Source: Linyphia triangularis (Eukaryota; Arthropoda; Arachnida; Araneae; Linyphiidae). Taken from it: 64,000 bases of DNA. Below are positions 5,617-46,304 of this stretch, piece after piece. The notes under the pieces were generated by a model, which was not told where the DNA came from, made no database searches, and worked only from the letters and a program-made list of their open reading frames with translations. The stretch covers positions 7,819,796 through 7,883,795 of the forward strand of contig OZ021730.1 of assembly GCA_963978545.1 (NCBI GenBank), in the 5' to 3' direction. Positions within the stretch are counted from its first letter, which is position 1, and each line of letters begins with the position of its first letter. The translations under genes and the position numbers were made by a program.

Positions 5617-8600
5617 CAGTGGCGGCTAGTGAGCAGTGAAAGTGAGGGGGCCCGATACCAAAAAATTATATATATATATGCTTGCTTACAACAACAAATA
5701 AGGTTTTTAAAATAATTGAAATAAAAAAATTAAGTCATGAGTAATGCTACTAATATTTCAGTCAATGATATTTTAATTATTAATTCATGCAAAATAATTT
5801 TGATTTTTGTATAATAGAGTTAATAAAATATTACAAAACCTTTGAAAGTGCAATATTTACAAGTTTACAAACAAAATAAAATTGAAGGCATTGTTATATT
5901 GACCAGTTCAATAGTTTTAAATTGAACTACTTGATATTCTTTGAATATAATGATCTATATGTCGTATATTTTTTTTGGCACAAGAGCTAAGGGAGAGTTA
6001 TACTTCAACGGAATATCCTTCAATCAAAATTTGGACTCTAATATATTAGTTCTTCTATCGAGGAAAGAACGTTTTTCAAGAAATCTTTTAAGAGAAAATG
6101 CACAGCATATGTATTTTAAACTTGAAGAAATCCTGAAAATCTGCAGAGGAACTCAACAATCGAAACCAAGATATCAGTCACAATTATTGATGTGTCTACT
6201 CGCTTTGAAAACAAATTACAGAGCACACGGCTTGACTCGATTGCTTCGGGTGTCAATCAGTTCGGATATAGCAGTCGTTAAAAATACAAGGTTTTGACCA
6301 TGATTCTTAATACTTTGAAAAGAAGTTAAAAAGTATGGAACTAACTTTAAACTTTTAATTTCGAATATCCTGTATGATATCTTTTCCAATGCTGTACACC
6401 TACTTATTTATTACAGAATTTTTTTCTAAAATTAGATCATCTTCTCTTTTATTTGTAATACCCAGTAAAAGGATAAATGTAGTTTCTGCCCAATTCTAGC
6501 CAAACCACTTATTTTGATTTGATAAGGAAATATTTTGCTGTCGTTATAGAAATTCATCTATTGATTGTACCGGAGAGTTACGTTAATAATTGTATACTAT
6601 ATTGTTATGAATTTTTCCTCTAAGGCAATGATGGCACAGTTTTTAAGATAAAAACTACTATTTATTCACTTCAGAAAACTCACAGAATTTATTCAAAGGC
6701 AACAGTGTTATCACTCTTAAGCTTCAACACAAGCTTCAACAAAAAACCAACTTCGAATACAGCGATTATACAAGCTCACTCTAATAAGTAAACAAAGCGA
6801 ACAGCTTTCATCGAACTCCGAAGTCAATCTGAAAACTTTCCCGATCTGCAGTCTTATTTATACTTGTCGCGAGAGAACATTCCCGAAATTTCCAGCCAAT
6901 TCGTCGGAAAAGAAACATCTCGAAATTTCTCGATTGCTTTAGGTGTTACACCTTTTTCTAACCTGTATAATCGCTGTTAATAAATGAAATAAGATACAAT
7001 AAATTACAATAGAATTTTAAAATAATACGTCACTATTTAAACTATATACAGACAATTTGTGCAACAATATCAAATATCATTGGGAGAGGTAAGACAAATC
7101 AACACTTCTGATCATTTGAACGAAATTTAAATACTCAGTTATTTTTCAAAACAAAAAGTAAATATCTGAACAAAAACCAATTGTAGACTCTTACATTTTA
7201 CTAAATAAAGAGTAAAATAAAAAAAAAAAAAAAAAAAAAAAAAAAACTTACCGTGGTTATTTATTGGTGTAAATTCTTTCGCAGTCGTACAAGTTGAAGA
7301 CACTAAAGATAAACGCCTGATCCCTGACTTTAAAGTAAGAAAAATAAGAATTGACCATTTCCATGCAGATCCCCAGGACCTGAAGGGGTATTAGTAATAT
7401 GATACTCATACCCATGGTATGACGAAAAAACTAAGGAAAAAACAGGATGTCACGTGAAAGGGAAGGAATGGCCCTCGCCACATTATAGAATTTTCTGTCG
7501 TATCTCTTTGCTCTTTAAGATGCAAATTCAAGGTCGACCGAAGTAAGGAGACATTTTGTTCCCCCAAGCACAGTCTGGGTAAACTAACATCTTTTGAAGA
7601 GGGCAAGAAGATTATCCTCATATAGTCATTCTAATAGCGTTAGGCTGTTAGAGTTTTAATAGGAATTATGGGTTCTTACAATATTCTGTAGAATTGCAAT
7701 CGTACTATAGTACGATTATTTAAAGTTTTTTTTCTTTCTTTTTTTTTTCTTCTTTTTTTTTTAGTTATGGTTTAAGCTTTTATTTTTGTAATTTATTTAC
7801 GTACGTGATTTTTTTATAGCAAATAAATTTTAAGGGGTATCCGCACACTAATACTGTATAACAAATTGGCTTCTAATCAAGAGGAAGATTGAACAATAAT
7901 ATCTGATGCAAAAATTTGGCTCACTCTTTCGTCATACATCCGACCAGGATTGTAGAAAAATGTGCCTAGTCGGTTAGAGCTACATTGGAAATTACTTTCA
8001 GAGGAACAATTTCAGTTTTTAGAAACAACAAGGATTCTTCTTTTGAGTGAGATCTTCTCTCTTTCCACAAGACAGACCGACAATCAAGGAGAGACCGTCC
8101 TAGTTTTTGTGCGAAATAAGTTAGTTACTTTCATTCAACTTATTTTTTCAAACGGTCACAGATGAGCATAAAAAATATCTTAGTTGGGCATTTCAAATTC
8201 ATTCCTTCAGCAGCGAATTAGTCTTACATCATTAAACTTTATGAGCCTAGTAATAAAATAAAAAATATCGATGCGTAACATTCATATTGGGTCTCTGATC
8301 TAATGAGATTAACTTTTATTTCGGCCGGGGATCTCCTTATCATATAGATCAGAAGACAGTGCCAAAACACGAAACTCAGGAATTTTGTAATTTGAGAACC
8401 ACACAAGGGGCTTGCAGGATATTGCAGGTGGCGAAAGTCAGTCTCTCACCCCCGCCCCTTCGTCTTTTTTCCAGCAAGTTTCTTCTACGGGCAAAGGAAA
8501 AGAAGCTCAATCAGGCGACTTAAATATTCATTCATAAGGAAATTTATTAGTTGAGTGAAAATGGTCAGTTTCAAGATTAAAACTTCAGATAAATCAGTAT

Positions 8601-9642: not shown

Positions 9643-10969
9643 TTAAATAAGGTGATAAAATCCAATGTCATGTAAAAATTTAAAAAGATTTCTGTGAGGT
9701 GGTGAACATAATATAGATGAAAGTGAAGGATGGTTGGCATTAAAATGCCGCTGTCTGAAGGTATTAAAACACGGACATTCGTTCAAAACATGAAAAACTG
9801 AAAAAATAACCCCACAGGTATTACATGTGGGGGCATCTTCTGCCAGCAGAAGATGCACATGGGTAAAACGAGTGTGACCAATTCTAAGGCGTGTCAGGAG
9901 CACTTCCCTTTTCCGAGATTGCTGAATGGGCGCGAATCTTGAAATTGAGGGCTGAAACGAACGCAGCTTGTTATCTGTCTGTGCATCCCACATGGCCTGC
10001 CAAGTGAGAGACAGAGCAGTGTCACAAGCTTTATTTGCGTCGTCAGGGCAGAGCCAAGTGCTCCTAGGTCCACTTGCTGATCGTGCGATGGAATCTGCGC
10101 GTTCATTACCCATGATCCCCACATGACCTGAGATCCAACAAAAAAGGATTTTAAAATGTCTGTCTAAAAGTGTGATATGAAGTTTTAAAATTTCTAAGAT
10201 AAAAGGATGGGTCTGGTTCAGTGGATTACTTAATGCATCTAAACAGCTCTTGGAATCTGTGTAAATAATCCACTGACCATGGCCTTGCTTTAAAATAAAT
10301 TGCAAGGCCAATAGAATAGTCAGAGACTCAGCTGTAAAGACAGAGCTGCTATGGTGCAGTTCTTGGGACATGATGGTACTGTCATGAACTGCAGCAGCTC
10401 CGACATGCCCCTGGCTTTTCGACCCATCCGTATATATGGACTTAAAATTAGAGAAATAATGTCTATGATAATAAAATATACTTGTAAAAGCAACTTCTGG
10501 TGTAGAACTTTTTTTAAAATTTGTAAAAAATATTAAGAACAATGATTTGATGATGGTGCCAGGGTGGAATGAAAAATGAGATAGGGCGAACCTTAAAATC
10601 GTCAATGTTGTGAGATGAAAGAATGGAACGAATTCTCAATGCAAAAGATGGAATGCATGATGGGCGTGCGTTAAAAAGTCGATGATGAAGAGGATTAAAA
10701 ATATGCTTTAAAAGAGGATGAGAAGGATGACTTTTTACATTAAAATAGAATTTTAAAGAAAGTTTCTCCCGTCTCTGACCCAGAGATGCTTCCAGACAAA
10801 GCACGTATAAACTTTGCACCGGTGCTGTACTAAATGCTCCTGATGCGATCCTGAGACCTGAATGGTGAACAGGATCCAGGAGCATTAGAGCCGATTTTCT
10901 GGCTGAACCGTACACCACCGAGCCGTAGTCAAGTATGGAACGGACCAGGCACCTGTATATCTTTAACAT
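9643..10969 (-). pseudogene. LINE F ORF2 C-terminal half: RNase H and zinc knuckle
   Basis: Two overlapping frames encode this part. The first, from 10969, starts MLKIYRCLVRSILDYGS and covers the post-RT region. The second, from 10605, covers RNase H (SIYTDGSKSQGHVGAAAVHD, later TDSKSCLDAL and GNERADSIA) and a C-terminal knuckle CNTCGVIFSVFHVLNEC. The change of frame falls in A/T runs near 10507-10535. RNase H removes RNA from the cDNA hybrid in I-group LINEs. Catalytic acids of the three RNase H motifs are kept, but the frameshift and truncation make it inactive. Confidence 0.85.
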
Positions 10970-11045
10970 GGAGGTTGTGTCAGCTCCCCAGGAAGTGTTA
11001 GAGAGAACTTTCAGGAGATTCAGGACTTTATTGCACTTCAGTTTT

Positions 11046-11515
11046 CACATACGCATCGGTATATTCAACGCTTGACGGGAAGGTGAAATAGTGCGTGTGC
11101 TCAATATTCTCTCGTAAAACCTTCAATGTCCACTCCATTAGGACAACATCTCCTCGCCGCTGCCTCAAATCCATATATCGCAGGCGAATGGAGTTTAGTA
11201 ACTTCACGTACTGATCAACATCGCCCCTATCCTCCGCTATCTCCGCCATCACGTTTTCATGTGCCCGTGATGTCACGAAATCGACGTTCGCTACACATAG
11301 CTGACTGATTTTCCGGTGTTCCACAACTCGGGTGGGCAGGCTCGTCGTACCAAGTGATGGGCCGTGCCAGTGCTCTGCCAGCTCCTGTCGAAACCAGTCG
11401 TACTGGTGGGATATCTGTAATGGTTCCAGGACGTGTGGGTAACGCACATAATCGTCGCGACATAAGTAACCGCGCACATTCTCCAGAGGTGCAGGATGTC
11501 TCAAGTCCATCTGCT
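11046..11515 (-). pseudogene. Capsid-like ORF, N-terminal piece (left partial unit)
   Basis: This piece duplicates the first ~156 codons of the virus-like ORF at 12279-15230 (offset 3720 bp). It ends abruptly where the unit is cut by the LINE F junction at 11045. One substitution (11375 versus 15095) separates it from the inner copy. No promoter is visible. It is only a remnant. Confidence 0.75.
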
Positions 11516-11717
11516 CCAGGGAGGACTTCAATTATGATTCCTAAAGGCCAGTTTATGCGCTTGGAATCAGTCTCAAGAAGAACCACATCTCCAATACTCA
11601 ACGATTCTTTCCGGCTGTGACCCTTTTGTACCAACATTGCTAAATATTCGTTACGAAATCTCATTCTTAAATCATGCCGTAATTCTCCAGCTTGGGAATG
11701 CCTTAAGAAAGGGGAAA
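11516..11717 (-). pseudogene. Pao DUF5641 stub (left partial unit)
   Basis: On the minus strand this encodes FRNEYLAMLVQKG, LSIGDVVLLETD and WPLGIIIEVLPGADG. That is the signature of DUF5641, the C-terminal domain of Pao integrases. It begins at the LTR edge and stops at GADG, where the capsid-like sequence starts in another frame. It is a near-identical copy of 15236-15437. Confidence 0.75.
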
Positions 11718-12150
11718 TGTTGCACAAATTGTCTGTATATATTGTAATTTATTTTTATCCAATTTTATTTAGTAATTAATAGCGATTATACAAGTTAGAA
11801 AAAGGCGGCAACACCTGAAGTAATCGAGACGTTTCAAGAAATTTCTTTCCGATGAATTGGCTGGAAATTTCGAGAATGTCTCACGCGCTTGTTTATAAAA
11901 AGACTGGAGAACGGGAAAGTTTTGAGATGTACTTCGGATTTCGTTGAAAGCTGATTGCTTTGTTGACCTATTGGAGTGCGCTTGTATAATCGCTGAATTC
12001 GAAGTTATTTTTGTTGAAGCTTGTGTTGAAGCTTGAGAGTAGTTAAACTGTTGCCTGTGAGTAGATTTTGTGAGTTTTCTGAAGAGAGAATAAATACTTT
12101 TAAACCGTGAAAACTGTGACATCATTGCCTCAGTGGAAAAATTCATAACA
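11718..12150 (+). mobile_element. Gypsy-type LTR, array copy 1 (433 bp)
   Basis: It starts TGTTGCACAAATTG and ends AAATTCATAACA. A purine-rich tract AAGAAAGGGGAAA (11705-11717) precedes it and a primer-binding site follows, which fixes the plus orientation. It matches the LTRs at 45839-46304 and 6603-7066 but lacks about 33 bp after TGTCTGTATAT. It differs from array copy 2 at 11836 and 12061 only. Confidence 0.9.
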
Positions 12151-12151
12151 G

Positions 12152-12169
12152 TGGTGTCAGAAGTGGGAT
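12152..12169 (+). promoter_or_regulatory. Primer-binding site after array LTR 1
   Basis: TGGTGTCAGAAGTGGGAT lies one base after the LTR end. Its complement ends in CCA and resembles the 3' end of arthropod tRNA-Leu (CCCACTTCTGACA plus CCA), so a tRNA-Leu primer is likely. An identical site follows LTR 2 at 15872-15889. Confidence 0.75.
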
Positions 12170-12181
12170 AAGTTGCAAAGA

Positions 12182-12243
12182 CTGGAGGAAAATGTCCTCC
12201 AGTGCGTCACACACCGTAGTTCCGGGCATTCATCAATGCCCGG
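12182..12243 (+). promoter_or_regulatory. Two perfect hairpins just after the primer-binding site (copy 1)
   Basis: CTGGAGGA-AAATG-TCCTCCAG (12182-12202) is a stem of 8 bp with a 5-nt loop. CCGGGCATT-CATC-AATGCCCGG (12222-12243) is a stem of 9 bp with a 4-nt loop. The same pair occurs at 15902-15963. Their place after the primer-binding site suits a packaging or dimerisation signal, but they could derive from the viral sequence. No function is shown. Confidence 0.55.
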
Positions 12244-12278
12244 AGCATGCGCATCTCGTACAAGACCCCCGGACCCGT

Positions 12279-15230
12279 CTACACGAGTGATAATTGCACG
12301 TCCGGCTTATATAGCGGCGTCTGGTTGTATACGACAACGTGCGATCTTAATCCAAAGGGACGGGCTGTAATCCCCGCCAACACCTGACTGCCAACGTCCA
12401 CTTGCACCTGCGCGCTCCAGTTCATTACAACGGCTGGAAAAAATTGATCCAAGCGAGTAACAATGCCTTGAGTACGCTCAAGCGCCACATTGACATCACT
12501 TGCGAACACAAAGGCATCTCTCACCCCTAACATAGGCAGCACGGGCTTTACACAATGCCCAGGGTCGCGTCCACCCCTCATAATCTGACTGTTACACACA
12601 CGAACAGTGACAAGTGCCACTTCCGGGACATTCTTTAGTCGCCCAACACACCCCTGCTCCCCCTTAAACTCGTTGGTGACATTCCCAATGGGGAGAACTG
12701 AATGACTATAGATATACCGCGCTCTAGGGAAGCAAACAGTACCCACTTGCATCGCTACCGCCTGCTCAATAAACTCAATAATCTCCGTGTTTCATGCGCA
12801 AGGTCGTTCCACAATATACGTGAGAAACTCCACGGAACACCGAAACTCGCGTCTTGCGATTGCCAACAATTCGCATGGATCTCTCGCGAACGTTTCGACC
12901 CGCTGCTCACGCATTTCAGCCGCCGCATCCCAATACTGATAGACAAGATAAATCACGTACAATTCCTGTGTCTGGTCACGAACTTCACTATGCACAACAT
13001 TGGCACGTGGAGCCATGTACACGCTAACGGGCGAAATTCGATGCGTCGCCTGGAAGGTCAATCCTCGCAAAAATCGCATACTGTACACCATTCCTCGTCC
13101 AATCCTGATCATACCATGCCGGTCCCCAAAGAACGCATCGCACAGCAAGTGAAAGTTGCTCTCAACCGATCTTCTGATGTAATTGCGATTTTGTCCACCC
13201 ATTACATTGAACGCCTGATCCTGCGTCACCGTTCCATACTCTAATTGGAAAACACGAGGATCAGCGTGCAACGTCCTGAACTCGACCTCATCTAAACAAC
13301 GCAATTCGTCGCAACCATTGGGAGCAATCCCAAACGCGTGCATCAGCGCGACCGTGGGCTTCGTATTCAACGTACCCCGCGACAAGGCTCTCACGATAAA
13401 TTCCCGCAAAACAGGTCGCAAAATCAGTGTACCAGTACTAATCCCCGCAATGATCCCAAATACCTCCATCATCTGCCGCCCAATACACAAACTCTTTTCG
13501 TATTCTAGAACACACGCCTCAGCATTATTCGAATTCCAAAGCTCAGTGTAAAACTGGAGGTCCACTCGCTGCTCTACATCCCGCTGCCCCGCTCTATAGA
13601 CACAACCGTGAGCCACTAAACGACTAAACGCCGTAATGCCCTGCTGTGGTGTTAATGGCGCAATTCCCTGATGGCCGGGGAACGTCGCTCGTGATGGATA
13701 CATGTAAGGCGCTGTAATGTCGTTCAAATTCGCAAGGAACTCAGGATTCTCACGCACACCATACATAGTCCGCCACAACACGCCAGGATCCCCGCAATCA
13801 AACCATAGCTCGGGATGAAGTACCGCCAGACGATAAATAGCGCAGTACGTGCTGTGGAAAAACTGCGAGAAGCCAACAATATATCGAGACATAATTGCCA
13901 GAGTGTGCGCTACCGCCTCTCGCGTGGACGCATTCTGTAACCTATCGCCGCCCGCATAGAACACGTTCTGATATCGCCCCCCCAAATCACGCACCCCAGC
14001 AAGCTCCTGCTGTAGGGGAGTCCACTCACCACCATCTCCTGATCTAGGCATATAAATTTGTCCAGGTATTCGCGCCCGGCGTCCACGTACACGATATCCA
14101 GGGTTCGGAATATCAATTTCCTCTGAAACATCGTGCAAACAGAAGAACTCCCAAAAACTACATAACAACTGCCAATGCAACTGAGGAATACCGCGTGGTA
14201 CCTCACCTGGGGGCTGCAGCACAACGAACTGTTCTATCGCGCAGCTCCGTCTTGAACTGGTAGACTCCTCCCACGTATGAATTCGTTCCCCATCGTGTGT
14301 TAATCCATACCCATCACGTGCCACCCACGCGTTGTACTCCCGTTCGAAAAATGTGCAGAAGAAGTCCATCAGCAAACACGCCTTAACGTGCTTGTTATAT
14401 GCGTAGAGATTCGGCGACATGGCTAACGATACCTTAATGCCCATCGCGAATAATACCGCCTTAATCGTATTTGGACTGCCGAACTGCATCCGTACGGCGA
14501 ACACATCAGTGAATGGTGCGAGCATATCCTGCACAATCGTATGCGCAAGTGTCTCTTTCGTGAATGGCGCAAAACACCGCATCCACGTCGCCAAGATGGT
14601 TCCAAGATTCTCATTTCCTCTCTGCATTGCATCCAAGGGTGCCGAAAAACCGTTTAAACAGTGAGCAGGGGTGATCAAATCAACATACCCCATTCTGGAT
14701 GTCACATTATCGAGCAAATGGCGATATACCAAAAACCTCAAATCCGATGAGATTAGAAACGCAGTCACATACGCATCGGTATATTCAACGCTTGACGGGA
14801 AGGTGAAATAGTGCGTGTGCTCAATATTCTCTCGTAAAACCTTCAATGTCCACTCCATTAGGACAACATCTCCTCGCCGCTGCCTCAAATCCATATATCG
14901 CAGGCGAATGGAGTTTAGTAACTTCACGTACTGATCAACATCGCCCCTATCCTCCGCTATCTCCGCCATCACGTTTTCATGTGCCCGTGATGTCACGAAA
15001 TCGACGTTCGCTACACATAGCTGACTGATTTTCCGGTGTTCCACAACTCGGGTGGGCAGGCTCGTCGTACCAAGTGATGGGCCGTGCCAGTGCTTTGCCA
15101 GCTCCTGTCGAAACCAGTCGTACTGGTGGGATATCTGTAATGGTTCCAGGACGTGTGGGTAACGCACATAATCGTCGCGACATAAGTAACCGCGCACATT
15201 CTCCAGAGGTGCAGGATGTCTCAAGTCCAT
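12279..15230 (-). pseudogene. Toti-like dsRNA virus capsid ORF (endogenous viral element), inner copy
   Basis: This long frame covers about 983 codons from the first ATG (15230) to the TAG at 12279-12281. One in-frame TGA at 12792-12794 divides it into about 812 and 170 codons. The right partial copy has Leu there (C at 12793 versus A at 16513), so the stop is a later change in this copy. The protein has no transmembrane segment, signal peptide, protease, polymerase or zinc motif. Its length and globular composition suit a capsid of toti-like (artivirus or Giardia-virus-like) dsRNA viruses, which is my best guess and not verified. It lies antisense inside an LTR element, between the DUF5641 stub and the primer-binding site. 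No intron is visible. It could instead belong to an unknown family. Preservation of nearly the whole frame implies recent capture or selection. Confidence 0.5.
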
Positions 15231-15235
15231 CTGCT

Positions 15236-15437
15236 CCAGGGAGGACTTCAATTATGATTCCTAAAGGCCAGTTTATGCGCTTGGAATCAGTCTCAAGAAG
15301 AACCACATCTCCAATACTCAACGATTCTTTCCGGCTGTGACCCTTTTGTACCAACATTGCTAAATATTCGTTACGAAATCTCATTCTTAAATCATGCCGT
15401 AATTCTCCAGCTTGGGAATGCCTTAAGAAGGGGGAAA
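15236..15437 (-). pseudogene. Pao DUF5641 stub (inner unit)
   Basis: It encodes the C-terminal Pao integrase domain: FRNEYLAMLVQKG at about residue 25 of the frame, LSIGDVVLLETD, then WPLGIIIEVLPGADG. In Pao elements this domain follows the integrase core and binds DNA or chromatin. Here only about 60 codons remain. They start right at the Gypsy polypurine tract and join the capsid-like ORF near 15230-15236 in a different frame. It is antisense to the LTRs. This makes it the trace of a third element in the chimera. Confidence 0.75.
15425..15437 (+). promoter_or_regulatory. Polypurine tract before array LTR 2
   Basis: AAGAAGGGGGAAA directly precedes TGTTGCAC. The same purine tract precedes the Gypsy LTR at 45839 (45826-45838). 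A variant, AAGAAAGGGGAAA, precedes LTR 1. The tract primes plus-strand DNA synthesis in LTR elements. Confidence 0.75.
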
Positions 15438-15870
15438 TGTTGCACAAATTGTCTGTATATATTGTAATTTATTTTTATCCAATTTTATTTAGTAATTAAT
15501 AGCGATTATACAAGTTAGAAAAAGGCGGCAACACCTGAAGTAATCGAGACGTTTCGAGAAATTTCTTTCCGATGAATTGGCTGGAAATTTCGAGAATGTC
15601 TCACGCGCTTGTTTATAAAAAGACTGGAGAACGGGAAAGTTTTGAGATGTACTTCGGATTTCGTTGAAAGCTGATTGCTTTGTTGACCTATTGGAGTGCG
15701 CTTGTATAATCGCTGAATTCGAAGTTATTTTTGTTGAAGCTTGTGTTGAAGCTTGAGAGTAGTTAAACTGTTGCCTGTGAATAGATTTTGTGAGTTTTCT
15801 GAAGAGAGAATAAATACTTTTAAACCGTGAAAACTGTGACATCATTGCCTCAGTGGAAAAATTCATAACA
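15438..15870 (+). mobile_element. Gypsy-type LTR, array copy 2 (433 bp)
   Basis: It starts TGTTGCAC and ends CATAACA. It is identical to LTR 1 except at 15556 and 15781. It carries the same 33-bp deletion relative to other family members. With LTR 1 it bounds a provirus-like unit of 4153 bp (11718-15870). Confidence 0.9.
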
Positions 15871-15871
15871 G

Positions 15872-15963
15872 TGGTGTCAGAAGTGGGATAAGTTGCAAAG
15901 ACTGGAGGAAAATGTCCTCCAGTGCGTCACACACCGTAGTTCCGGGCATTCATCAATGCCCGG
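15872..15963 (+). promoter_or_regulatory. Primer-binding site and twin hairpins, copy 2
   Basis: TGGTGTCAGAAGTGGGAT is at 15872-15889. The hairpins CTGGAGGA/TCCTCCAG (15902-15922) and CCGGGCATT/AATGCCCGG (15942-15963) follow. They are identical to the set after LTR 1. Confidence 0.65.
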
Positions 15964-15998
15964 AGCATGCGCATCTCGTACAAGACCCCCGGACCCGT

Positions 15999-17469
15999 CT
16001 ACACGAGTGATAATTGCACGTCCGGCTTATATAGCGGCGTCTGGTTGTATACGACAACGTGCGATCTTAATCCAAAGGGACGGGCTGTAATCCCCGCCAA
16101 CACCTGACTGCCAACGTCCACTTGCACCTGCGCGCTCCCGTTCATTACAACGGCTGGAAAAAATTGATCCAAGCGAGTAACAATGCCTTGAGTACGCTCA
16201 AGCGCCACATTGACATCACTTGCGAACACAAAGGCATCTCTCACCCCTAACATAGGCAGCACGGGCTTTACACAATGCCCAGGGTCGCGTCCACCCCTCA
16301 TAATCTGACTGTTACACACACGAACAGTGACAAGTGCCACTTCCGGGACATTCTTTAGTCGCCCAACACACCCCTGCTCCCCCTTAAACTCGTTGGTGAC
16401 ATTCCCAATGGGGAGAACTGAATGACTATAGATATACCGCGCTCTAGGGAAGCAAACAGTACCCACTTGCATCGCTACCGCCTGCTCAATAAACTCAATA
16501 ATCTCCGTGTTTAATGCGCAAGGTCGTTCCACAATATACGTGAGAAACTCCACGGAACACCGAAACTCGCGTCTTGCGATTGCCAACAATTCGCATGGAT
16601 CTCTCGCGAACGTTTCGACCCGCTGCTCACGCATTTCAGCCGCCGCATCCCAATACTGATAGACAAGATAAATCACGTACAATTCCTGTGTCTGGTCACG
16701 AACTTCACTATGCACAACATTGGCACGTGGAGCCATGTACACGCTAACGGGCGAAATTCGATGCGTCGCCTGGAAGGTCAATCCTCGCAAAAATCGCATA
16801 CTGTACACCATTCCTCGTCCAATCCTGATCATACCATGCCGGTCCCCAAAGAACGCATCGCACAGCAAGTGAAAGTTGCTCTCAACCGATCTTCTGATGT
16901 AATTGCGATTTTGTCCACCCATTACATTGAACGCCTGATCCTGCGTCACCGTTCCATACTCTAATTGGAAAACACGAGGATCAGCGTGCAACGTCCTGAA
17001 CTCGACCTCATCTAAACAACGCAATTCGTCGCAACCATTGGGAGCAATCCCAAACGCGTGCATCAGCGCGACCGTGGGCTTCGTATTCAACGTACCCCGC
17101 GACAAGGCTCTCACGATAAATTCCCGCAAAACAGGTCGCAAAATCAGTGTACCAGTACTAATCCCCGCAATGATCCCAAATACCTCCATCATCTGCCGCC
17201 CAATACACAAACTCTTTTCGTATTCTAGAACACACGCCTCAGCATTATTCGAATTCCAAAGCTCAGTGTAAAACTGGAGGTCCACTCGCTGCTCTACATC
17301 CCGCTGCCCCGCTCTATAGACACAACCGTGAGCCACTAAACGACTAAACGCCGTAATGCCCTGCTGTGGTGTTAATGGCGCAATTCCCTGATGGCCGGGG
17401 AACGTCGCTCGTGATGGATACATGTAAGGCGCTGTAATGTCGTTCAAATTCGCAAGGAACTCAGGATTC
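15999..17469 (-). pseudogene. Capsid-like ORF, C-terminal piece (right partial unit)
   Basis: This holds the last ~490 codons of the virus-like ORF with no stop before the terminal TAG at 15999-16001. It keeps a Leu codon at 16512-16514 where the inner copy has TGA. The frame continues about 19 codons into foreign flanking sequence (to 17528). The unit ends at 17469 in the motif TCAGGATTC, where it diverges from 13749. It preserves the ancestral state of the C-terminus. Confidence 0.55.
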
Positions 17470-17975
17470 ACAGTTCTTTGCATGAAAATTTGACAGCCTA
17501 AGCTAGTTTTATCAGCTGTTGTTTGCAAAAATTGTTATTTAGATAATTCACTAGTTATATGCTTCAGATTTTTCAGAAAACCTGATGTTTTTGTTGGTGG
17601 TCTGTTTATCAACTCCTCCAGTGTATTGTTATAAATATTTTACTTTTTCTTCCTTTAAACTTAAAATATCATATCAGATTTTTATGATAAGCAGTTTTAT
17701 CTGGAAACTCTTCATTTTATTTTTCCTAAGTTTTCAGATCTGGGTTGCTGAGAAACCTAATAATTAGCTTCTATTCTCAAGTAACTCTGATTTTGACATT
17801 CAATGCAGCAAATGCTTAAATATCTACATTCCTAGGCATGCCCGAATTTTAAAATAAGTATTTTAATGCATATATATTTCGCGAAATCCCCGAGTATTGT
17901 TTAAAATGCGTTTTACGCAAAAAAAATTTGAATTTTTGTTTTCAGCTTTTTGATTTTTTACCAAACTCATACCTG
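17470..17975. other. AT-rich filler between array and LINE F
   Basis: This 506-bp stretch has no match elsewhere in the window. No ORF is recognisable. It is inside the GTTTT-flanked insertion, so it moved with the array or arose by repair. Confidence 0.5.
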
Positions 17976-18265
17976 GTTTTAGATGTTTGATATGAGGCAG
18001 GAAAGTGAGCTTAGAGTCAAATATTATACCGAGAAATTTAGACTCGGGAACAATGGGTATTTGAGCACCATTTAGATAAATCCCTGGGTCATGGTGAAGC
18101 TCACGTTTCCTGCAGAAGTGCATGGCTACGGTTTTTTTAGCAGAAAAAGTAAACCCATTCCTTATTAGCCCAGTCCGTGATTCTCCTGATAGCCAGCTGA
18201 AGCTGTCTCTCTATGAGTGACATATTCGTTGAGGCGCAAGATAGTTGAAAATTGTCAACAAACAA
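17976..18265 (-). pseudogene. LINE F ORF2 fragment (RT thumb side)
   Basis: The minus strand encodes HFCRKRELHHDPGIYLNG, IPIVPESKFLGIIFDSKL and FLPHIKHL, which match LINE C ORF2 just after the RT catalytic motif. Upstream the frame reaches MSLIERQLQLAIR before homology ends. Alignment with LINE C shows that it directly continues the sequence ending at 11045. Confidence 0.85.
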
Positions 18266-18275
18266 CGACCCTGAT

Positions 18276-18789
18276 ACAGGCCAATAAAGGAAGGAAAAAG
18301 TAATCATGATAAATTCTTATATGTTCACTACATTTACGAAAAAAACCTGATTTTTCCTTTGACTACCAAATAGTTTTGATGGTACCAGACAAAAACGTGA
18401 TTCATTTAATTCAGACGGCAGCCAACTGTTAGCAAATTAGTATTTGCTTGTTGCGATTCTTATCAATATTCTAATTAAAACTGCTGCATATATTTATCTC
18501 CTGTTGGGTGCCTGCTACTTACCAATAATTTTTTATCACTTTGTTCTAAATCATAAACAAAACATTGTGTTCATCACAAAGAGTTAAAATGCACAATAAA
18601 AGCCATAAATACCGCCTAGCTTATGTTTGATGAAAGTTTTACTATTTTTTTTTTTGAGTCATTCATTCTCAAAACCTGCTGTAACTTGTGATTTAGAGGG
18701 ACCAAAGGTATTCCTCTGTTATCATCGGAAAAGTTAATAAATGTTTTAATGCATTTTAGTATCGGTATAATCCAAAGATTCCAGTAAAT
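18276..18789. other. AT-rich stretch, nothing recognised
   Basis: No coding or RNA feature is evident. Short A/T runs occur. Confidence 0.45.
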
Positions 18790-34072: not shown

Positions 34073-37000
34073 CTAGATGCGATTTAAAAACCCGATTGAT
34101 CTTAAAAAAGCAAAAAGATTTGGATGGGGAGTTTCCCCTATCAAATCCTGAAGACTTAAACTGGTACTATTAAAAAACCTAAGACGATGCGTCTGAAACT
34201 TAGGACAAGAAATTAAAATATGAACTACAGTAAGATCGCAACGACAAATATCGCAAACAGGTGGATTTTCTCCCAGCAATAGATGTCGATGCGTCAATGT
34301 GTGACCAATGCGCAGACGAGTCAGTTTGACATCTGTCCGACGCATTGGATTAACTGGCCATTTAAGAAGATGATTTTTGATAAAATGAAGTTTGTTATTA
34401 ACCTGCAAATCCCATGTTTCTTGACGTAAGGATAATGAACTTGTGAATTGAAGTCTTAATATCTTGGTAGGGAACTGGCTGCTGCAGCGGAATTGAAGCC
34501 GCTTTAGCAGCAGAATCGGCCAATTCATTGCCTGAAATTCCCATGTGACTAGGTACCCAGCAGAACAAAATAGTAAATCCTTTCCTCTCAAGTGTGTGTA
34601 ACTTTGACAAAATGTCAAAGGCAAGTGGATGGCTATTGTTCTTAAATTGCTCAAGACTTGACAAGGAGCTTAAACTGTCAGTATACACACAAAATTTGCG
34701 ATTGTGGCAGAGTGAGATATGCAGCAGTGCACAAGAAATTGCTGTCATCTCAGAAGTGAAAACCGAGCAGGATTTATGAAGTGCAAAAGCGACTGTGGAT
34801 GTGTCGGACACAGTACCACAGCCAACAAGTTCACCTGCTTTGGATCCATCAGTAAATACTGCTTCATAGTCAGCATACTGAGAGCGGTGATCGTAAAAGA
34901 TTTGTTGCATAATTTCTGGGGCAGTGTCTGCCTTGCAATACATCGCAAATGGATTGAGAAAGTGGAAAGATGGAATATTCCACGGTGGAAAGGATTGAGT
35001 GGTAAATGTTTGGGTAACTACGTCACTTAGAGCTGCATCCAACAAGATGGATTTCGCTCTTTCAGAAAATGGTCGGATGTTAGATAGACGAGCATCATAT
35101 AACCTACCAAGATAGGCATCAAGTCTCAACTTACGTAAAGGGTGAAAAGGATCAGACATAATTCTACAGTAGTAGTTGGCGCTTAATTTTTTCCGTCTCA
35201 AGTCAAGTGGAAGTAGACTACACTCTGTCAACAGACTTTCAATGGGTGAAGTGCGAAATGCACCTGAACAAATACGGGCAGCAGTGTGATGGACAGTATC
35301 CAATCTTCGTAGAAGGGATACTCCTGCAGACCCATACGCAACGCATCCGTAATCAATGCGAGATAAGATAACCGAATTGTAAATACGCAGCAAAGAAGTG
35401 CGATCAGCACCCCAAGATGTATTTGAGAGTACTTTGAGGATATTAAGCGATTTATCGCACTTCTTGCGCAAGTATACAATATGTGGCAGAAAATTTAACT
35501 TGTTGTCGAAGATGACTCCCAAGTATCTTATCTGATTCACAACTGGGATGGGAGAATTGCGTATGTGGATTTCAGGGTCAGGGTGAAGACCCCTCCTCCT
35601 ACAGAAGTGGATGCAACTGCTTTTAGATGGTGACAGTTTATGGCCGTTTTGTTCACACCATTCTACAAGTCTGTTAACAGCAGTTTGTAACTGACGTTCA
35701 ATTAAGCGCATGTTTGATCCTTGGCACGAGATTTGCAAGTCATCAACATACAAAGTTCCATGAACAAAGGGTGAAAGGACATGAAGGATGTTGCTGATAT
35801 GAAGATTAAAAAGGGTGACACTTAAAACACAACCTTGAGGAACTCCCTCAGATTGGTTAAAATAATTTGAAAATGAAGCTCCAATGCAAACTCTAAAAAC
35901 ACGAGATGATAAAAAATTTTGAATAAAAAGGGGCAGATTACCCCTAAAACCAAAATTAAATAGAGTTTGCAGGATACCATATCGCCACGTATGATCATAC
36001 GCCTTCTCAATGTCGAAAAAGATTGAAACTAGATGATTCCTCTGCACAAAGGCATTACGAACATCTGTTTCTAGTTTCACGATGTTATCAAGAGTGGACC
36101 GCCCTCGTCGGAATCCACTCTGGAAAGGTGAAATACATCCATCTTTTTCCAACATGTAAGAGAGTCGGGCGTTTACAATACGTTCAAAGGTCTTACAGAG
36201 GCAGCTCGTTAATGCTATCGGTCGATAGTTCAGAGGATCCTTGGGATCCTTTCCAGGTTTCAGAATGGGGATTACAGTAGCTTCCCGCCACAAAGTAGGA
36301 AAGATGTTCTCCTTCCAGATTCTATTAAAGAGAAAAAGGATGTTAAAAAGAGAATCTGGACTTAAATGGCGAAGCATTTGGTAACTGATCCCATCTGGAC
36401 CTGGACTGGTGTTATGTGCTTTAGATAAAGCACTCTTCAATTCGTACATCTTAAGGTCACAGTTGTAGGAATATTCAATATTGCTTTTGAAATTAATTCC
36501 AGTCCGTTCAGCTCGATTCTTAGTCACAAGAAAAGCAGGACTATAAGAATCGGAACTGGATATACTTTCAAAAGTTTCACCTATAAGGTTAGCAATATCT
36601 TCAGGGGAAGAGAACACAGCAGCTCCGGTTTGAAGTATCGGACAAGAATATTCCGGATACAAACCGTTGGCTGCTCTAACCTTCTTCCACAACTTCTTGC
36701 TTGATGTTTTGGATGTAATTGTAGATACATAACTTATCCAAGAGTCCTTCTGACTCTGACGTCTAACTCTACGAGCAACTGCCTTAGCCTTTTTAAAGGC
36801 GATAAGGTTTCCTGTAGTTGGGTATCTGCGGAAGATACCCCATAGCTTCTTTTGTTTCTTGTATGCTGACTGACAGTCTGCATTCCAGTATGGTTTACAG
36901 TGCCGCAGTGTTCTAGGTGATGTCTTAGGAATGGAGGAGTCAGCAGCATTTAAAATTGCTTCAATGACATTTTGGACAGCAGTATCAACATCCTCACTGT

Positions 37001-37748
37001 CCACCATTGTTCCTGATATAACAGCCAACTCAGTAAATTTGTCCCAATTCGCCCTGTGGTATTTGTATCTAGGTAGACGGATGTTTACGTTACTAATACC
37101 GTTATGGGAAATGAGAATTGGGAAGTGATCACTGTTATGTAGATCACTTCCAACAGCAAAATTCAAGTATGGCAAAAGTATAGGGGAACAAATGGCTAAG
37201 TCTAGTGAATGGAATGTTCTAGTGGGTTCATGGAAATATGTTTTCTCCTCGTTATTCAGGAGACAGAGACACTGATCAGATAGCAACTTTTCAATCTGTC
37301 TCCCACGAGGGTTCGTATTATCACTACCCCACATAGTACTGTGTCCATTAAAGTCACCGAGCAGTAAAAATGGTGCTGGAAGTTGATCAATAAGGTCATT
37401 CAGCTCCTCTTGGCGGATGATAGCATGTGGCGGTAAGTATAGGCAACAGACTGTAAGAAGGGACTGTATATGAAGTCTCGCAGCCACAGCCTGTAGAGAT
37501 GTGCGTAGTGTGAGTACAGTGCTGGGATAATCATGAGAAATAAAGAGACATACTCCTCCAGACACTGTATTACTACGGGTAACATCTTTTCTAATGCAGC
37601 TATACCTACGGATTTTAGATATATATGAATCCTTCAAGAAGGTTTCTTGAAGGGCCAAACATGCTGGATGGTAAAGTGAAATAATGTTCTTCACATCATC
37701 CTTCCTAGACCTAAAACCGCGACAGTTCCAAGAAACAAAAGAAGCCAT
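34073..37748 (-). pseudogene. LINE B ORF2: endonuclease, reverse transcriptase, RNase H, zinc knuckle
   Basis: ATG at 37748 opens a 1116-codon frame. The APE-type endonuclease is at residues 1-230 (FVSWNCRGFRSR, LLLGDFNGHSTMWGS, SDHFPILI). RT is at about 430-710 (RPIALTSCLCKTFER, QSGFRRGRSTLD, catalytic YVDDLQIS). RNase H is at about 940-1080 (VFTDGSKAGELVGCG, TDSLSSLSSLEQF, GNELADSAAK). The frame then ends at 34398. The neighbouring frame (34654-34073) carries the missing C-terminus with the knuckle CDICRCDLTVVHILISC, so one indel near 34430-34445 splits the protein. ORF2 nicks the target and primes cDNA synthesis. All core catalytic residues that I can see are kept; only the C-terminal ~115 residues are out of frame. 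Confidence 0.92.
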
Positions 37749-38998
37749 TAATTACTTGATGCAATTTTAAAAGGTGGGTCAGGCTCTTCACTAATATCTT
37801 CGTCATCAGATGGGTGAAGGTTCACCACATCCGCCTCCCTAAATGAACGAAGGATATTAAAACGGTTAGATGGCTTCTCTCGAGAAGGTCCTCCTTTAGC
37901 TGTTTTAAGTTTTATTGCTTGTAATGCTTTAGACTTAGCTAAGGTTTTCTTCAAAATAAGCGGTTGTTTAATTACCTCCGTAGATGTTCTCTGAGGTAAT
38001 TTAACTAGACTTGAGGAAGTAGACTCTGTCTGTGTGCTTTTGCTGCTGAAAGTTTTTTTGCAAACATCAGCATAGGCGACACCAACAGAAGGGGTTCTAG
38101 CTTCAACAAGTCTTCTAGCATCAAAGTATGACAAATTTTGGTTCACTCGCACGGTCTGGATTTCCTTTTCTTTTACCCACACTGTACATTTCCGATAGTA
38201 AGATGGATGTGAGCCGTCACAATTTACACACTTTTCAGGTGCCTTGCAATTAGCACTAGCATGTCCAGTATCTGCACAACGTGCGCATGTTTCCGTTTCC
38301 CCACGACAAGCTGTTTGTGAGTGACCATATTTCTGGCACTTGAAACAGCGAAGTGGGTTCGGAACATACGGACGAACAGGGCAATTCAGATAGCCGGCTT
38401 TTACGTGCGATGGTAATGTGGGCAAATCGAAAGTGAGAATCAAATGCTTAGTAGGCATGATATTCCCTTCTCGACGTATGGTTATACGGTGGACGGCTGA
38501 AACGTGTTGCTCACGTAAGTGGTCAAGAATCTCGTCCTCCGGTGTGTAGTAAAGGTCTGATTCTGACACCACACCGCGAGATTTATTAAGGGAACCATGT
38601 ACTGTCACATTTACCGGGAGTGTTCCAAAATATTCGATCTTTAGTATTTTCTTCGCTTGTTGGACATTGCGAACTTCAACTAAAAGATCTCCAGACTTCA
38701 GTTTCTTAACTGAAGCTGTATCGCCAACAAATGATGCTAGAGTTTTTTCTATTAGAAAAGGAGATACCTTTTCGAAAGAGCCCTCCTTACGATGAACGAT
38801 GAAGAATTTTGCTGCAATGTTATTTGTAGAATTTTGTCTATGTTGCTCCCCACTAGGGGGAGAAGAAGAAGAAGATTGACTTTCCATGAAAGTAGTATTG
38901 ATTAATTCGGGCACTACAGTCCCACCCACCATGGAGTCCTCGATATCGGGGATAGTGCATACCGGCAAGCAATAAAATAAGAAAGGAAAAGAAAACAT
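37748..38998 (-). CDS. LINE B ORF1: Gag-like zinc-knuckle RNA-binding protein
   Basis: Open from ATG 38998 (417 codons); ATG 38887 (MESQSSSSSPPSGEQ) aligns better with ORF1 of the other LINEs and may be the true start. Three knuckles lie in the C-terminal half: CFKCQKYGHSQTAC, CARCADTGHASANC and CVNCDGSHPSYYRKC. The N-terminal half has a conserved KTLASFVGDTASVKKLKSGD region. The stop codon overlaps the ORF2 start as TAATG at 37750-37746, which suits termination-reinitiation. The protein should coat the LINE RNA in a cytoplasmic RNP. No lesion is visible. Confidence 0.88.
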   Translation of the reverse strand: MFSFPFLFYCLPVCTIPDIEDSMVGGTVVPELINTTFMESQSSSSSPPSGEQHRQNSTNNIAAKFFIVHRKEGSFEKVSPFLIEKTLASFVGDTASVKKLKSGDLLVEVRNVQQAKKILKIEYFGTLPVNVTVHGSLNKSRGVVSESDLYYTPEDEILDHLREQHVSAVHRITIRREGNIMPTKHLILTFDLPTLPSHVKAGYLNCPVRPYVPNPLRCFKCQKYGHSQTACRGETETCARCADTGHASANCKAPEKCVNCDGSHPSYYRKCTVWVKEKEIQTVRVNQNLSYFDARRLVEARTPSVGVAYADVCKKTFSSKSTQTESTSSSLVKLPQRTSTEVIKQPLILKKTLAKSKALQAIKLKTAKGGPSREKPSNRFNILRSFREADVVNLHPSDDEDISEEPDPPFKIASSN

Positions 38999-39520
38999 CA
39001 ACTAAACTATTGCGCACGGTATGTCACTAACAGGTTATCCAGTGCCTATACGCGACCGACTCGTCCCTGTAGAAGCCTCCACCCTTAACGAGGTTCCCAG
39101 CAGATGGGTCGGACGCTTGATCCCTAGCCGCCGACGAAGTCGGACGACCAGCCGATTGATACACACGGGACCAATGTGTACCTCCCGTTTATCTGAAGCA
39201 AGGGCCAAAGTAGTGTATTGGGACAGTATGTCGCCCCTCAACTACCAGGATCCCCCTTTCCAGGGACACGGGTCTCCACGCACGGCAAACACGTGGGTGA
39301 TTTAATTCCCAAGAGAAGCTGATGGCAACAGAGCGGCACAAAGCTTCTCAAGGGAAGCCCTCACCTCTGAAGAGGTAACCACAACGAGGGAAGGAAGAGA
39401 AGCCAAACAATAAAAACAGAACCCAAAAAAGAAGGTAAAACAGAAGGAGGGATGGATCACTGGGGCGCCCCGGGGTTGTGAAGCCCGTATTTACTTATAG
39501 AAAGTAAACCCCCTGAGGGG

Positions 39521-41094
39521 TGTGCGTAGCTGAGATTGAATAAACTCCTCTCGAGAGTTTATGTGCAGCTAGATCAAACGGGAGATGAATTCAATGTTTG
39601 TACAGAAGATGATACGGAATGTTTTAATCGTCTAATCGACTCTGACCTTAATGTTGAACAAAGGGCAGAACTGCTGAAACTCTTACAGGAATTTAGTGGC
39701 AATTTTGACTTCGGATGCAAATCACACAAGAGTTGTAAAACATAGAATCGATACGGGCAGTAACCCGCCCCTAAAACAAAAACCTTATCGTGTGTCACTC
39801 ACAGAGCGACGTATCATACAAGACGAAGTCGATAGAACGGTCGATCTTGGGATCGTGAGCCCCTCCGAGAGTCCTTGGTCTTCGCCGGTCGTTCTCGTTA
39901 AAAAGAAAAATGGAACCAGGCGGTTTTGTGTGGACTATCGCGAATTGAATAAAGTCACAAAAAAGGATGTATACCCTCTTCCCCGTATAGATGACGCACT
40001 AGACAGTCTAGCAGGGTCGAAATTTTACTCATCCATGGACATGAAGTCTGGATACTGGCAGATAGAGATGGATGAAAAAGACCGCGAAAAAAAGGCCTTC
40101 GTGACGCCCGATGGATTATACCAATTTAGCGTAATGCCTTTTCGGCTGTGCAATGCTCCAGCAACTTTTGAGCGTATGATGGATAATTTGTTGAAAGGCT
40201 TGAAATGGAACATCTGTCTATGTTATTTGGATGATGTTGTCGTATATGCCTCTACATTCCAAGAACATATTCGGCGATTACGACAAGTCTTGATGTGCTT
40301 TCGAAAAGCGGGACTCTACCTAAATCTTGATAAATGTCGATTTGGGAAAACAAAATTAAAAATATTGGGGCACTTGGTTGATGAAGATGGAATCCATCCG
40401 GACCCCGAGAAGGTCGAAGCTGTGGTGAATTTCCCTGTTCCAAAAAGTACAGTTTGTGTCAGGAGTTTCTTGGGGTTATGTTCCTATTATCGCAGGTTCA
40501 TAAGGGATTTTTCTGAAATCGCTAAGCCATTGAATGATCTGATAAAAAACTATATGAAGTTCACTTGGACGGAGGAACAAGAATTGTCCTTTTCGAATTT
40601 AAAGTCGGCTCTCACAAAACCCACCGTTCTAGGTCATTTTAGTGCGGAAATGAACACAAGAATTCATACTGACGCCAGTGGTCATGGAATCGGTGCAGTT
40701 ATCGTTCAGATACAGAACGGAGTCGAGCGACCAATCGCATATGCATCTCGTTCCTTGACGCCAGCTGAGAAGAATTACTCGACCACCGAGAGGAAATGTC
40801 TTGCTGTGGTTTGGGCCATCAATAAATTCCGACCATATCTCTTTGGGCAACAGTTTGTAGTGGTGACCGACCATCATTCGCTCTGTTGGTTGACTAACCT
40901 CAAGGATCCGTCAGGAAGACTGGCCAGATGGGCTCTGCGTTTTCAAGAATGTGATTTCGCCATCGAATATAAAAGTGGAAAGAAACACCGGGATGCTGAT
41001 TGTCTCTCTCGAAACCCTTTGCCCTACTCTGAAGAAGCTTGCCTGGACGATATTTGTTTGCGCCTGATTGGTCGAGAACAATTTATCCTCGTGG
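39521..41094 (+). pseudogene. Gypsy-type reverse transcriptase and RNase H
   Basis: After the target duplication the pol frame shifts: LNKLLSRVYVQLDQTGDE is in one frame to about 39716, and the main 473-codon frame starts before ANHTRVVKHRIDTG. The RT has PSESPWSSPVVLVKKKNGT, RRFCVDYRELNKVTKKDVYP and catalytic CYLDDVVVYA near 40220. RNase H has IHTDASGHGIGAV and VTDHHSLCWL. The frame ends where a Pao LTR begins (41095), so the integrase zinc and core domains are missing here. A stop at 39541 also interrupts the link to the protease. It is a dead pol fragment of the element whose integrase tail and LTR lie at 45425-46304. Confidence 0.9.
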
Positions 41095-41334: not shown

Positions 41335-41354
41335 TTTTGGTCCGTGAACGATCC
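41335..41354 (+). promoter_or_regulatory. Candidate Pao primer-binding site
   Basis: TTTTGGTCCGTGAACGATCC follows the LTR end within three bases. Its complement ends in ACCA, as tRNA 3' ends do. I do not assign the tRNA. Confidence 0.5.
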
Positions 41355-45424: not shown

Positions 45425-45778
45425 AGACCACCGGACACCCCTTCCTCGCCTGTCCAGTATCTAGATGATCTCCAGGCGCGTTTGGAAGCCGTACATCGGT
45501 TCGCCAGAGAAAGAATCAACATCATGACAGAGCGCATGAAGGTCCGCTACGATGCCAAGGCCACGGAACGTTCATTCCAGGAAGGTGACAAGGTGTGGTT
45601 ATGGAATCCTAAACGTCGGAAAGGACTCTCCCCTAAGCTCCAGACGAACTGGGAAGGGCCGTATGTGGTCCTTAAGAAGATCAACGACGTCGTGGTGAGG
45701 ATTCAACGGACACCCTCCTGTAAACCTAGAGTTGTACATAACAATAGACTAGCCCCATATTATGGTAGAAGTGATTGA
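45425..45778 (+). pseudogene. Gypsy integrase C-terminal fragment
   Basis: The frame reads YLDDLQARLEAVHRFARER, then KATERSFQEGDKVWLWNP and LQTNWEGPYVVLKKIND. That is the C-terminal DNA-binding part of Gypsy integrases. It ends RVVHNNRLAPYYGRSD and a stop, about 60 bp before the 3' LTR. It is the tail of the element interrupted at 41094. Confidence 0.88.
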
Positions 45779-45825
45779 ATTGCCTTTCCTCTTAAGGACT
45801 TCACTGCCCGGGACGTGCAGTCTTT

Positions 45826-45838
45826 AAGAAGGGGGAAA
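45826..45838 (+). promoter_or_regulatory. Polypurine tract of the Gypsy element
   Basis: AAGAAGGGGGAAA directly precedes the LTR start TGTTGCAC. It is identical to the tract at 15425-15437. Confidence 0.75.
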
Positions 45839-46304
45839 TGTTGCACAAATTGTCTGTATATAGTGTAAATAGTGACGTATTATTTCAAAATTCTATTGTA
45901 ATTTATTTTTATCCTATTTTAGTTAGTAATTAATAGCGATTATACAAGTTAGAAAAAGGTGGCAACACCTAAAGTAATCGAGAAGTTTCGAGATATTTCG
46001 TTTCCGATAAATTGGCTGGAAATTTCGAGAATGTCTCACGCGCTTGTATATAAAGGATTGGAGAACGGGAAAGTTTTCAGATTGACTTCGGAGTTCGTTG
46101 AAAGCTGATCGCTTTATTTACCTATTGGAGTGAGCTTGTATAATCGCTGAATTCGAAGTTATTTTTGTTGAAGCTTGTGTTGAAGCTTGAGAGTAATTAA
46201 ACTGTTGCCTGTGAATAAATTTTGTGAGTTTTCTGAAGAGAGAATAAATATTTTTAAACCGTGAAAACTGTGCCATCATTGCCTCCGTGGAAAAATTCAT
46301 AACA
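45839..46304 (+). mobile_element. Gypsy 3' LTR (466 bp)
   Basis: It runs from TGTTGCACAAATTG to AAATTCATAACA. It has the 33-bp segment AGTGTAAATAGTGACG... that the array LTRs lack. It follows the polypurine tract and integrase tail, so this is the autonomous parent family of the array LTRs. No matching 5' LTR is in the window. Confidence 0.92.

What the first reader, a model, noticed from the sequence alone, without database searches (positions are those of the whole stretch)
11046..17469. Virus-like capsid ORF carried antisense inside a Gypsy-LTR element, in tandem
Each 3720-bp unit has an LTR, a primer-binding site and a polypurine tract of a Gypsy family that is also present as a pol-bearing copy nearby (39521-46304). 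Where gag-pol should be, it has a ~980-codon virus-like ORF in antisense plus a Pao integrase stub. Endogenous viral elements near LTR elements are known. An LTR element whose whole interior is replaced by antisense viral cDNA, and then amplified, would be unusual. It could supply antisense viral RNA from the LTR promoter, as in piRNA-based antiviral memory. That role is inference.
Basis: partly seen in the sequence, partly recalled or inferred. Interest (0 to 1): 0.92.

Follow-up and report, generated by a model that had tools for sequence, protein, structure and literature searches.

The report
Virus-like gene trapped in a retrotransposon
A recent accident of reverse transcription appears to have copied a virus-like RNA backwards into a retrotransposon, joining it exactly at the element's primer site, and the product then entered the chromosome as a partial tandem repeat, probably by way of a DNA circle.

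Summary
The sequence observation largely holds. Two 99.8% identical 3720-bp units (1.7 in all, 11046-17469) carry the LTR, 18-nt primer-binding site and polypurine tract of a Gypsy family, with an antisense 990-codon virus-like frame and 180 bp of antisense Pao pol in place of gag-pol. New: (1) Foreign DNA begins directly after the 18-nt PBS; 27 of 27 other family loci examined continue there into the gag leader. It ends at the PPT. This marks a chimera made during reverse transcription; copying of viral RNA from its 3' end by plus-strand strong-stop DNA would explain the antisense direction. (2) A whole-genome protein search found the frame only in this array: no parent gene, no spread. (3) The array starts and ends inside the frame. 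With 506 bp of other host DNA it lies in a LINE with a 5-bp duplication; five testable Gypsy copies have 4-bp duplications at LTR ends. It probably entered as a concatemer of a one-LTR circle, through DNA repair. Virus identity is not shown: Pfam, PDB, IMG/VR and unaligned structure prediction gave nothing, and the large protein database was off. A piRNA role is untested. Virus-gypsy circles and LTR-flanked EVEs are known; this junction anatomy is a new variant.

The parts
11046..17975 (.). whole insertion into a LINE copy (6930 bp): array plus 506 bp of other host DNA
   Evidence: 13 of 13 fetched LINE copies with the site are uninterrupted (L058-L070); also LINE copy 50907-51614 in the window
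11041..11045 (.). left copy of 5-bp target-site duplication GTTTT
17976..17980 (.). right copy of 5-bp target-site duplication GTTTT
11046..17469 (.). tandem array, 1.7 units of 3720 bp
11505..11684 (-). Pao pol 3' end (DUF5641), antisense to the LTR; copy of a repeated Pao family
   Evidence: PF18701; 38 other listed matches, 79-99% identity
11685..11702 (.). 18-nt filler of unknown origin between Pao and the PPT
   Evidence: with up to 2 mismatches the 18-mer is found only in the array within the window and the loci held then
11703..11717 (+). polypurine tract of the Gypsy family (approximate limits)
11718..12150 (+). Gypsy LTR 1
12152..12169 (+). primer-binding site, 18 nt (by position and conservation; tRNA not checked)
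12170..12278 (-). non-coding stretch after the virus-like frame, folds into strong hairpins; putative viral 3' end
   Evidence: 12170-12290 folded: z -4.0, 0 of 200 shuffles as good; only the two array copies found in the genome
12279..15251 (-). virus-like frame (990 codons, first ATG at 15230), broken by one in-frame stop near 12790
   Evidence: copies found in the genome all lie in this array
15225..15404 (-). Pao stub, second copy (first-unit coordinates plus 3720)
15438..15870 (+). Gypsy LTR 2; 2 of 432 compared positions differ from LTR 1
15872..15889 (+). primer-binding site, second unit
15999..17469 (-). 3' half of the virus-like frame in the partial second unit
17470..17975 (.). other host DNA, 94% identical to C14:100814877-100815927, the only other match listed; joined to the array through 5-bp microhomology GATTC (17465-17469)
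   Evidence: one search scored 40 of 1736 candidates, so further copies may exist
9643..11045 (-). interrupted LINE (jockey-like by recall), 3' part
17976..18277 (-). interrupted LINE, 5' part (extent of the alignment)
45427..46304 (+). integrase tail, PPT and 3' LTR of the same Gypsy family elsewhere in the window

Best explanation
During reverse transcription in a Gypsy particle, the plus-strand strong-stop DNA, whose 3' end is the 18-nt copy of the primer tRNA, left its own template and went on copying a foreign, non-polyadenylated, virus-like RNA from that RNA's 3' end. That gave antisense cDNA directly after the PBS. Synthesis ran to the start of the frame, switched to a co-packaged Pao RNA (again copied into antisense), and returned to the Gypsy minus strand at the PPT, giving LTR-PBS-[antisense virus-antisense Pao]-PPT-LTR. 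This DNA became a one-LTR circle; about 1.7 tandem turns, ligated to a piece of host DNA, were sealed into a LINE by end joining and not by integrase. The LTR could transcribe antisense viral RNA. Shown: the anatomy, the junctions, the single location found, the target duplication. Inferred: virus identity, order of template switches, circle, any function.
For: Foreign DNA starts directly after the PBS, while 27 of 27 other family loci examined run into the gag leader there; the unit keeps PPT and LTR at the other end. Virus and Pao pieces are both antisense to the LTR, as expected if sense RNAs were the templates. The stretch beside the PBS is a strong hairpin region after the stop codon, with no poly(T). 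No other copy and no parent gene were found in the 1.35-Gb genome. A family copy with open gag and pol frames exists (L030; pol open to the end of the fetched stretch). The array ends lie inside the frame, with one LTR per unit. The insertion has a 5-bp duplication against 4 bp in 5 of 5 testable Gypsy copies, plus captured host DNA with a microhomology joint. Virus-Ty3/gypsy hybrids in circular DNA are documented in mosquito cells (PMC6797480, section 8 part 1 and section 9 read).
Against: No sequence match to any virus and no usable fold (models at pLDDT 34 and 30). The primer tRNA was not identified (the pattern search did not complete). The hairpin is equally present in the complementary strand, so it does not by itself prove a viral 3' end. 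The 18-nt filler before the PPT is unexplained. The 506-bp host piece is 6% diverged from its only listed match, so the direct donor was not found. The circle itself is inferred; segmental duplication plus deletions could give the same array. Genome searches score a capped candidate list, and the tool warns that a DNA miss does not show rarity.
Confidence: 0.55

Rival explanations
1. Negative-strand capture: minus-strand DNA synthesis switched onto a negative-sense viral RNA (as present in dsRNA), ran off its 5' end, and plus-strand strong-stop DNA was then joined end to end with that cDNA instead of pairing at the PBS.
For: Also gives antisense orientation and a junction at the PBS end; dsRNA viruses carry negative strands (established knowledge).
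Against: Needs an antisense Pao RNA as second template, because the Pao piece is antisense too; sense Pao RNA is the form expected in particles (established knowledge).
Confidence: 0.2
2. LTR-mediated retroposition of a host messenger RNA: the frame is a host gene copy, not a virus.
For: The process is described in animals (passages in PMC5408686 citing Tan 2016). No virus match was found here.
Against: No parent gene found: 3 of 3 genome hits are the array itself. No poly(A)/poly(T) at the captured 3' end. GC3 54% against 29-44% in three transposon frames of the window. No Pfam domain in the 819- and 511-aa pieces.
Confidence: 0.12
3. DNA-level rearrangement: a virus insertion next to a Pao fragment was placed between Gypsy LTRs by recombination or nested insertion, then duplicated in tandem by unequal exchange.
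For: The window is dense in nested elements; tandem LTR arrays can arise by exchange (recalled).
Against: Ends at the PBS end and at the PPT would be coincidences. Unequal exchange between LTRs should leave LTRs at both outer ends; here both ends lie inside the virus-like frame.
Confidence: 0.12
4. Assembly artefact joining separate loci or mis-stacking one unit.
For: Two nearly identical units are a classic trap; no reads could be examined.
Against: The flanks form one LINE with a 5-bp duplication that is uninterrupted in 13 of 13 other fetched copies; the units differ at 6 sites.
Confidence: 0.06

Closest known systems
CFAV NS2A fragment flanked by Ty3/gypsy LTR and gag in Aedes aegypti Aag2 cells, and circular SINV/CFAV-LTR hybrid DNAs (Tassetto 2019, PMC6797480; section 8 part 1, section 9 and find passages read)
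   Same: RNA-virus cDNA recombined with a Ty3/gypsy LTR element; circular hybrid DNA; chromosomal copy among transposons
   Different: The parts read state no junction at the end of the PBS and no tandem array; small RNAs were shown there, not here; virus known there, unidentified here
eBxnv-1: nodavirus RdRp inside a Bel/Pao LTR element of Bursaphelenchus xylophilus (Cotton 2016, PMC5177903; abstract and Results read)
   Same: RNA-virus gene between two LTRs with PBS and PPT
   Different: Keeps retroelement pol sequences (no gag seen) between its two LTRs, with 9 insertion fragments elsewhere; here gag-pol is fully replaced, the insert is antisense, in partial tandem, and was found at one locus
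Anakin: Pao elements with chuvirus glycoprotein (PMC7642597; abstract read)
   Same: Viral gene within LTR boundaries
   Different: Added glycoprotein gene in many Pao copies, thirteen of them complete and likely autonomous; here one locus and no gag-pol
LTR-mediated retroposition of host mRNAs (Tan 2016, not held, recalled; passages in PMC5408686 read)
   Same: Template switching puts foreign RNA between LTRs
   Different: Source is host mRNA; here no host parent was found and the insert starts directly after the PBS
LCMV-IAP recombination in mouse cells and mice (Geuking 2009, not held; described in PMC3205384, passages read)
   Same: Exogenous RNA virus joined to an LTR retrotransposon and integrated
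   Different: Experimental infection; that 2011 review knew of no endogenous copy

Membership tests
Non-retroviral endogenous viral element | sequence homology to a non-retroviral virus | tested here: inconclusive
   no match in Pfam, PDB, phages, IMG/VR; the large protein database was off
Non-retroviral endogenous viral element | no host parent gene, integrated in a chromosome | tested here: met
   (3 of 3 hits in the array); flanks
LTR-retrotransposon / RNA chimera made by template switching | foreign sequence between two LTRs with PBS and PPT kept | tested here: met
LTR-retrotransposon / RNA chimera made by template switching | junctions at points of reverse-transcription transfer | tested here: met
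   directly after the PBS in the array, gag leader in 27 of 27 other loci; PPT end with 18 nt of unexplained filler before it
Standard Ty3/gypsy integration | 4-bp duplication at LTR ends (as this family does) | tested here: not met
   5-bp duplication at non-LTR ends; 4 bp in 5 of 5 testable family copies
Integrated one-LTR circle concatemer | interior-LTR-interior-LTR order with ends inside the interior | tested here: met
   the circle itself was not observed
dsRNA virus capsid | capsid fold | tested here: inconclusive
   single-sequence models at pLDDT 34 and 30; no fold search run on them
piRNA-producing antiviral locus | small RNAs from the locus | not testable with these tools
   no small-RNA reads available

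The most novel reading that the evidence does not exclude
The locus is a germline fossil of a virus-retrotransposon DNA circle, and its PBS+1 junction shows a polarity rule: plus-strand strong-stop DNA primes copying of the 3' end of viral positive-strand RNA, so virus captured this way always lies antisense behind an LTR promoter. That would give insects a built-in way of making antisense viral transcripts from newly made circles, before any selection on orientation.
Probability: 0.2. Interest if true: 0.85.

Novelty: new variant of a known kind. Interest (0 to 1): 0.62.

Why it matters
How viral RNA becomes antisense DNA in insects is an open question in piRNA-based antiviral memory. This locus keeps the actual joints: one at the end of what would be plus-strand strong-stop DNA, one at the PPT, and a chromosomal joint that looks like DNA repair. 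It predicts a junction (LTR-PBS, then the viral 3' end in antisense) that can be looked for directly in circle sequencing of infected cells and in existing genomes. The host here was not identified, so that it is an insect is itself an assumption.

Tried and rejected
Virus identification: Pfam at E up to 10, PDB sequences at E up to 10, tblastn against phage records, and an IMG/VR pattern scan gave no relative (two chance-level PDB rows, E 0.97 and 1.5; three pattern stretches that tblastn did not confirm). AlphaFold without an alignment gave pLDDT 34 and 30; no fold search was run because such models are meaningless. Rfam at E up to 1 gave nothing for 10500-18500. ARAGORN found no tRNA gene in the window. 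Origin of the 18-nt filler: the 18-mer with up to 2 mismatches was found only in the array; a 14-mer of it had one two-mismatch match, in the Gypsy copy L030/L007, taken as chance. A tRNA match for the PBS and a search for toti/luteo-type RdRp (PF02123) in the genome did not complete. I rejected the reading that the nearby 39521-46304 stretch is one copy of the family, and the reading that the element spread in the genome. Literature: the listings of ten searches and the passages read showed no report of an EVE joined at the PBS end or as a tandem one-LTR concatemer, in an open-licence library that lacks most subscription papers; I did not open most listed papers.
Full report
Setting. The window is part of contig C10 of a 1.35-Gb genome of an unnamed organism, a eukaryote judging by its size and transposons. 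Of the frames scanned with Pfam, LINE frames lie on the minus strand at about 9.6-11, 34-39, 50-55 and 59-64 kb, and Gypsy and Pao fragments at 39-46 kb. The organism was not identified.

The array. A 3720-bp unit is repeated from 11046 to 17469, 1.7 times, with 6 differences in 2705 compared sites. Each unit has one LTR (433 bp; two differences between the two LTRs over 432 compared positions) in plus orientation with a TATA-like and a poly(A)-like motif, a PPT before it and an 18-nt PBS after it. The rest of the unit, read on the minus strand, is 180 bp of Pao pol (DUF5641; 38 other listed matches at 79-99%), a frame of 990 codons with one in-frame stop near 12790, and 109 bp of non-coding sequence with strong hairpins (12170-12290 folded: z -4.0, 0 of 200 shuffles as good). 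The frame is far longer than chance, has GC 50% against 38% for the window, and GC3 54% (819-codon piece) against 29-44% in three transposon frames.

The host element. LTR, PBS and PPT belong to a Gypsy family with gag and pol; one copy, L030, has a 471-aa gag frame and a pol frame open for 885 aa to the end of the fetched stretch. Copies with 2.45-2.71 kb between PBS and PPT are common: 14 of the 20 loci (one more at 3.97 kb; five with no PPT inside the fetched stretch). In the window, 45427-46304 matches this family closely in DNA; the RT at 39.7-41.1 kb is 46% identical in protein to that of L030 and the pol at 41.4-45.1 kb is Pao. A further, 83% similar LTR lies at 6603-7066.

The junctions. 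I examined 27 distinct loci of the family that have an LTR followed by the PBS: L003-L008, L026 (the same place as L029), and L036-L055. L030-L035 are enlarged views of the first six places and are not counted again. In 27 of 27 the gag leader starts directly after the PBS; in the array units the foreign sequence does. In four of the 27 (L052-L055) the first leader base happens to be the same letter as in the array, and the L003 alignment runs four bases further, so the joint is fixed to within a few bases and most simply placed at the PBS end. These are 26 of the 40 places listed plus one; two of the 40 are the array itself, and 12 were not fetched; itself scored 40 of 1063 candidates. At the other end Gypsy sequence resumes at TTAAGAA before the G run of the PPT, with 18 nt of unknown filler between it and Pao. 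Virus and Pao meet at GGAGCAGATGGAC, which is Pao sequence and overlaps the first ATG of the frame; because the true viral sequence upstream is unknown, microhomology there is possible, not shown.

What the junctions mean. From established knowledge of retroviral reverse transcription, plus-strand strong-stop DNA ends when 18 nt of the primer tRNA have been copied. A foreign sequence joined there was most simply made by extending that DNA on a new template. If the template was a positive-sense RNA entered at its 3' end, the product lies antisense behind the LTR, as seen; Pao, also antisense, fits as a second sense template. The absence of poly(T) beside the PBS speaks against a polyadenylated messenger. 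The hairpins fit a viral 3' end but would fold in either strand, so they are supporting evidence only. The PBS was not checked against a tRNA gene: that search did not complete.

Not a host gene, not a mobile family. The 819-aa piece searched against the whole genome gave three candidates, all scored, all in the array. A query covering the 109-bp stretch (12150-12300) also found only the two units, with the tool's warning that a DNA miss does not show rarity. So no parent gene and no spread were found in this assembly.

How it entered the chromosome. The flanks are one LINE copy, interrupted. In 13 of 13 LINE copies fetched with the site (L058-L070) the sequence is continuous, and the comparison fixes the insertion as 11046-17975 with GTTTT duplicated (5 of the 13 have GTTTT there, 8 have ATTTT; also the copy at 50907-51614). 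The last 506 bp, 17470-17975, match one other listed place, on C14, at 94%, where a 532-bp stretch with inverted-repeat-like ends interrupts it; one search scored 40 of 1736 candidates, mostly LINE, so further copies may exist. Array and host piece meet at GATTC, present in both. Five Gypsy copies with both ends readable have 4-bp duplications, four ATAT and one CTAT. Thus this insertion does not look like the work of the Gypsy integrase at LTR ends. One LTR per unit and outer ends inside the frame fit a concatemer of a one-LTR circle better than exchange between LTRs. The small divergence between units means the array is young; I give no age because no rate for this host was measured.

Function. 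From the LTR promoter the predicted RNA would be antisense to the virus-like frame (for motifs). This would suit piRNA- or siRNA-based memory, as reported for other EVEs in Aedes cells (PMC6797480; section 8 part 1, section 9 and passages read), but nothing here tests it.

Against my reading. No homology to a virus was found by any means available; the large protein database was off, IMG/VR was scanned only for close relatives, and the structure models are unusable. The circle and repair steps are inferred from the anatomy.

Comparison. Virus-Ty3/gypsy hybrids in circular DNA and a CFAV fragment flanked by gypsy LTR and gag are published (PMC6797480), as is a nodavirus RdRp inside a Pao element (PMC5177903, abstract and Results read). 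The new points are the joint at the PBS end with antisense polarity, replacement of the whole interior, and entry as a partial concatemer with microhomology and added host DNA. The listings of my paper searches showed no such case, in an open-licence library that lacks most subscription papers.

Noticed in passing
17976-18277 and 9643-11045; genome hits: Of 38 listed matches to the LINE flank other than the query itself, 30 lie on contig C10; this LINE family may be concentrated on one chromosome (only 40 of 1736 candidates were scored).
   Followed up: no
9643-11045, 34398-39001, 49853-55058, 59330-63974: The LINE coding stretches found among the frames scanned with Pfam all lie on the minus strand, as does the virus-like frame, so a plus-strand transcript would be antisense to them.
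   Followed up: no
34398-39001: LINE copy with a 1116-aa ORF2 (endonuclease, RT, RNase H) and a 417-aa upstream frame without Pfam match, apparently intact.
   Followed up: no
L031:5017-7680: A short Gypsy derivative carries one 887-aa frame that runs from gag into the integrase tail; copies of this interior length are common in the family (14 of 20 loci; their frames were not checked).
   Followed up: partly
L057 (C14:100814877-100815927): A 532-bp stretch with inverted-repeat-like ends (CCCTTTAAATCCCA / TGGGATTTAAAG) interrupts the homologue of the captured host DNA; looks like a small DNA transposon.
   Followed up: no
11718-12150 and 15438-15870: The LTRs of the array lack about 33 bp near their start that several other family LTRs have (L030-L033, L035; L034 differs less).
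   Followed up: partly
6603-7066: A second, 83% similar LTR of the Gypsy family on the minus strand.
   Followed up: no
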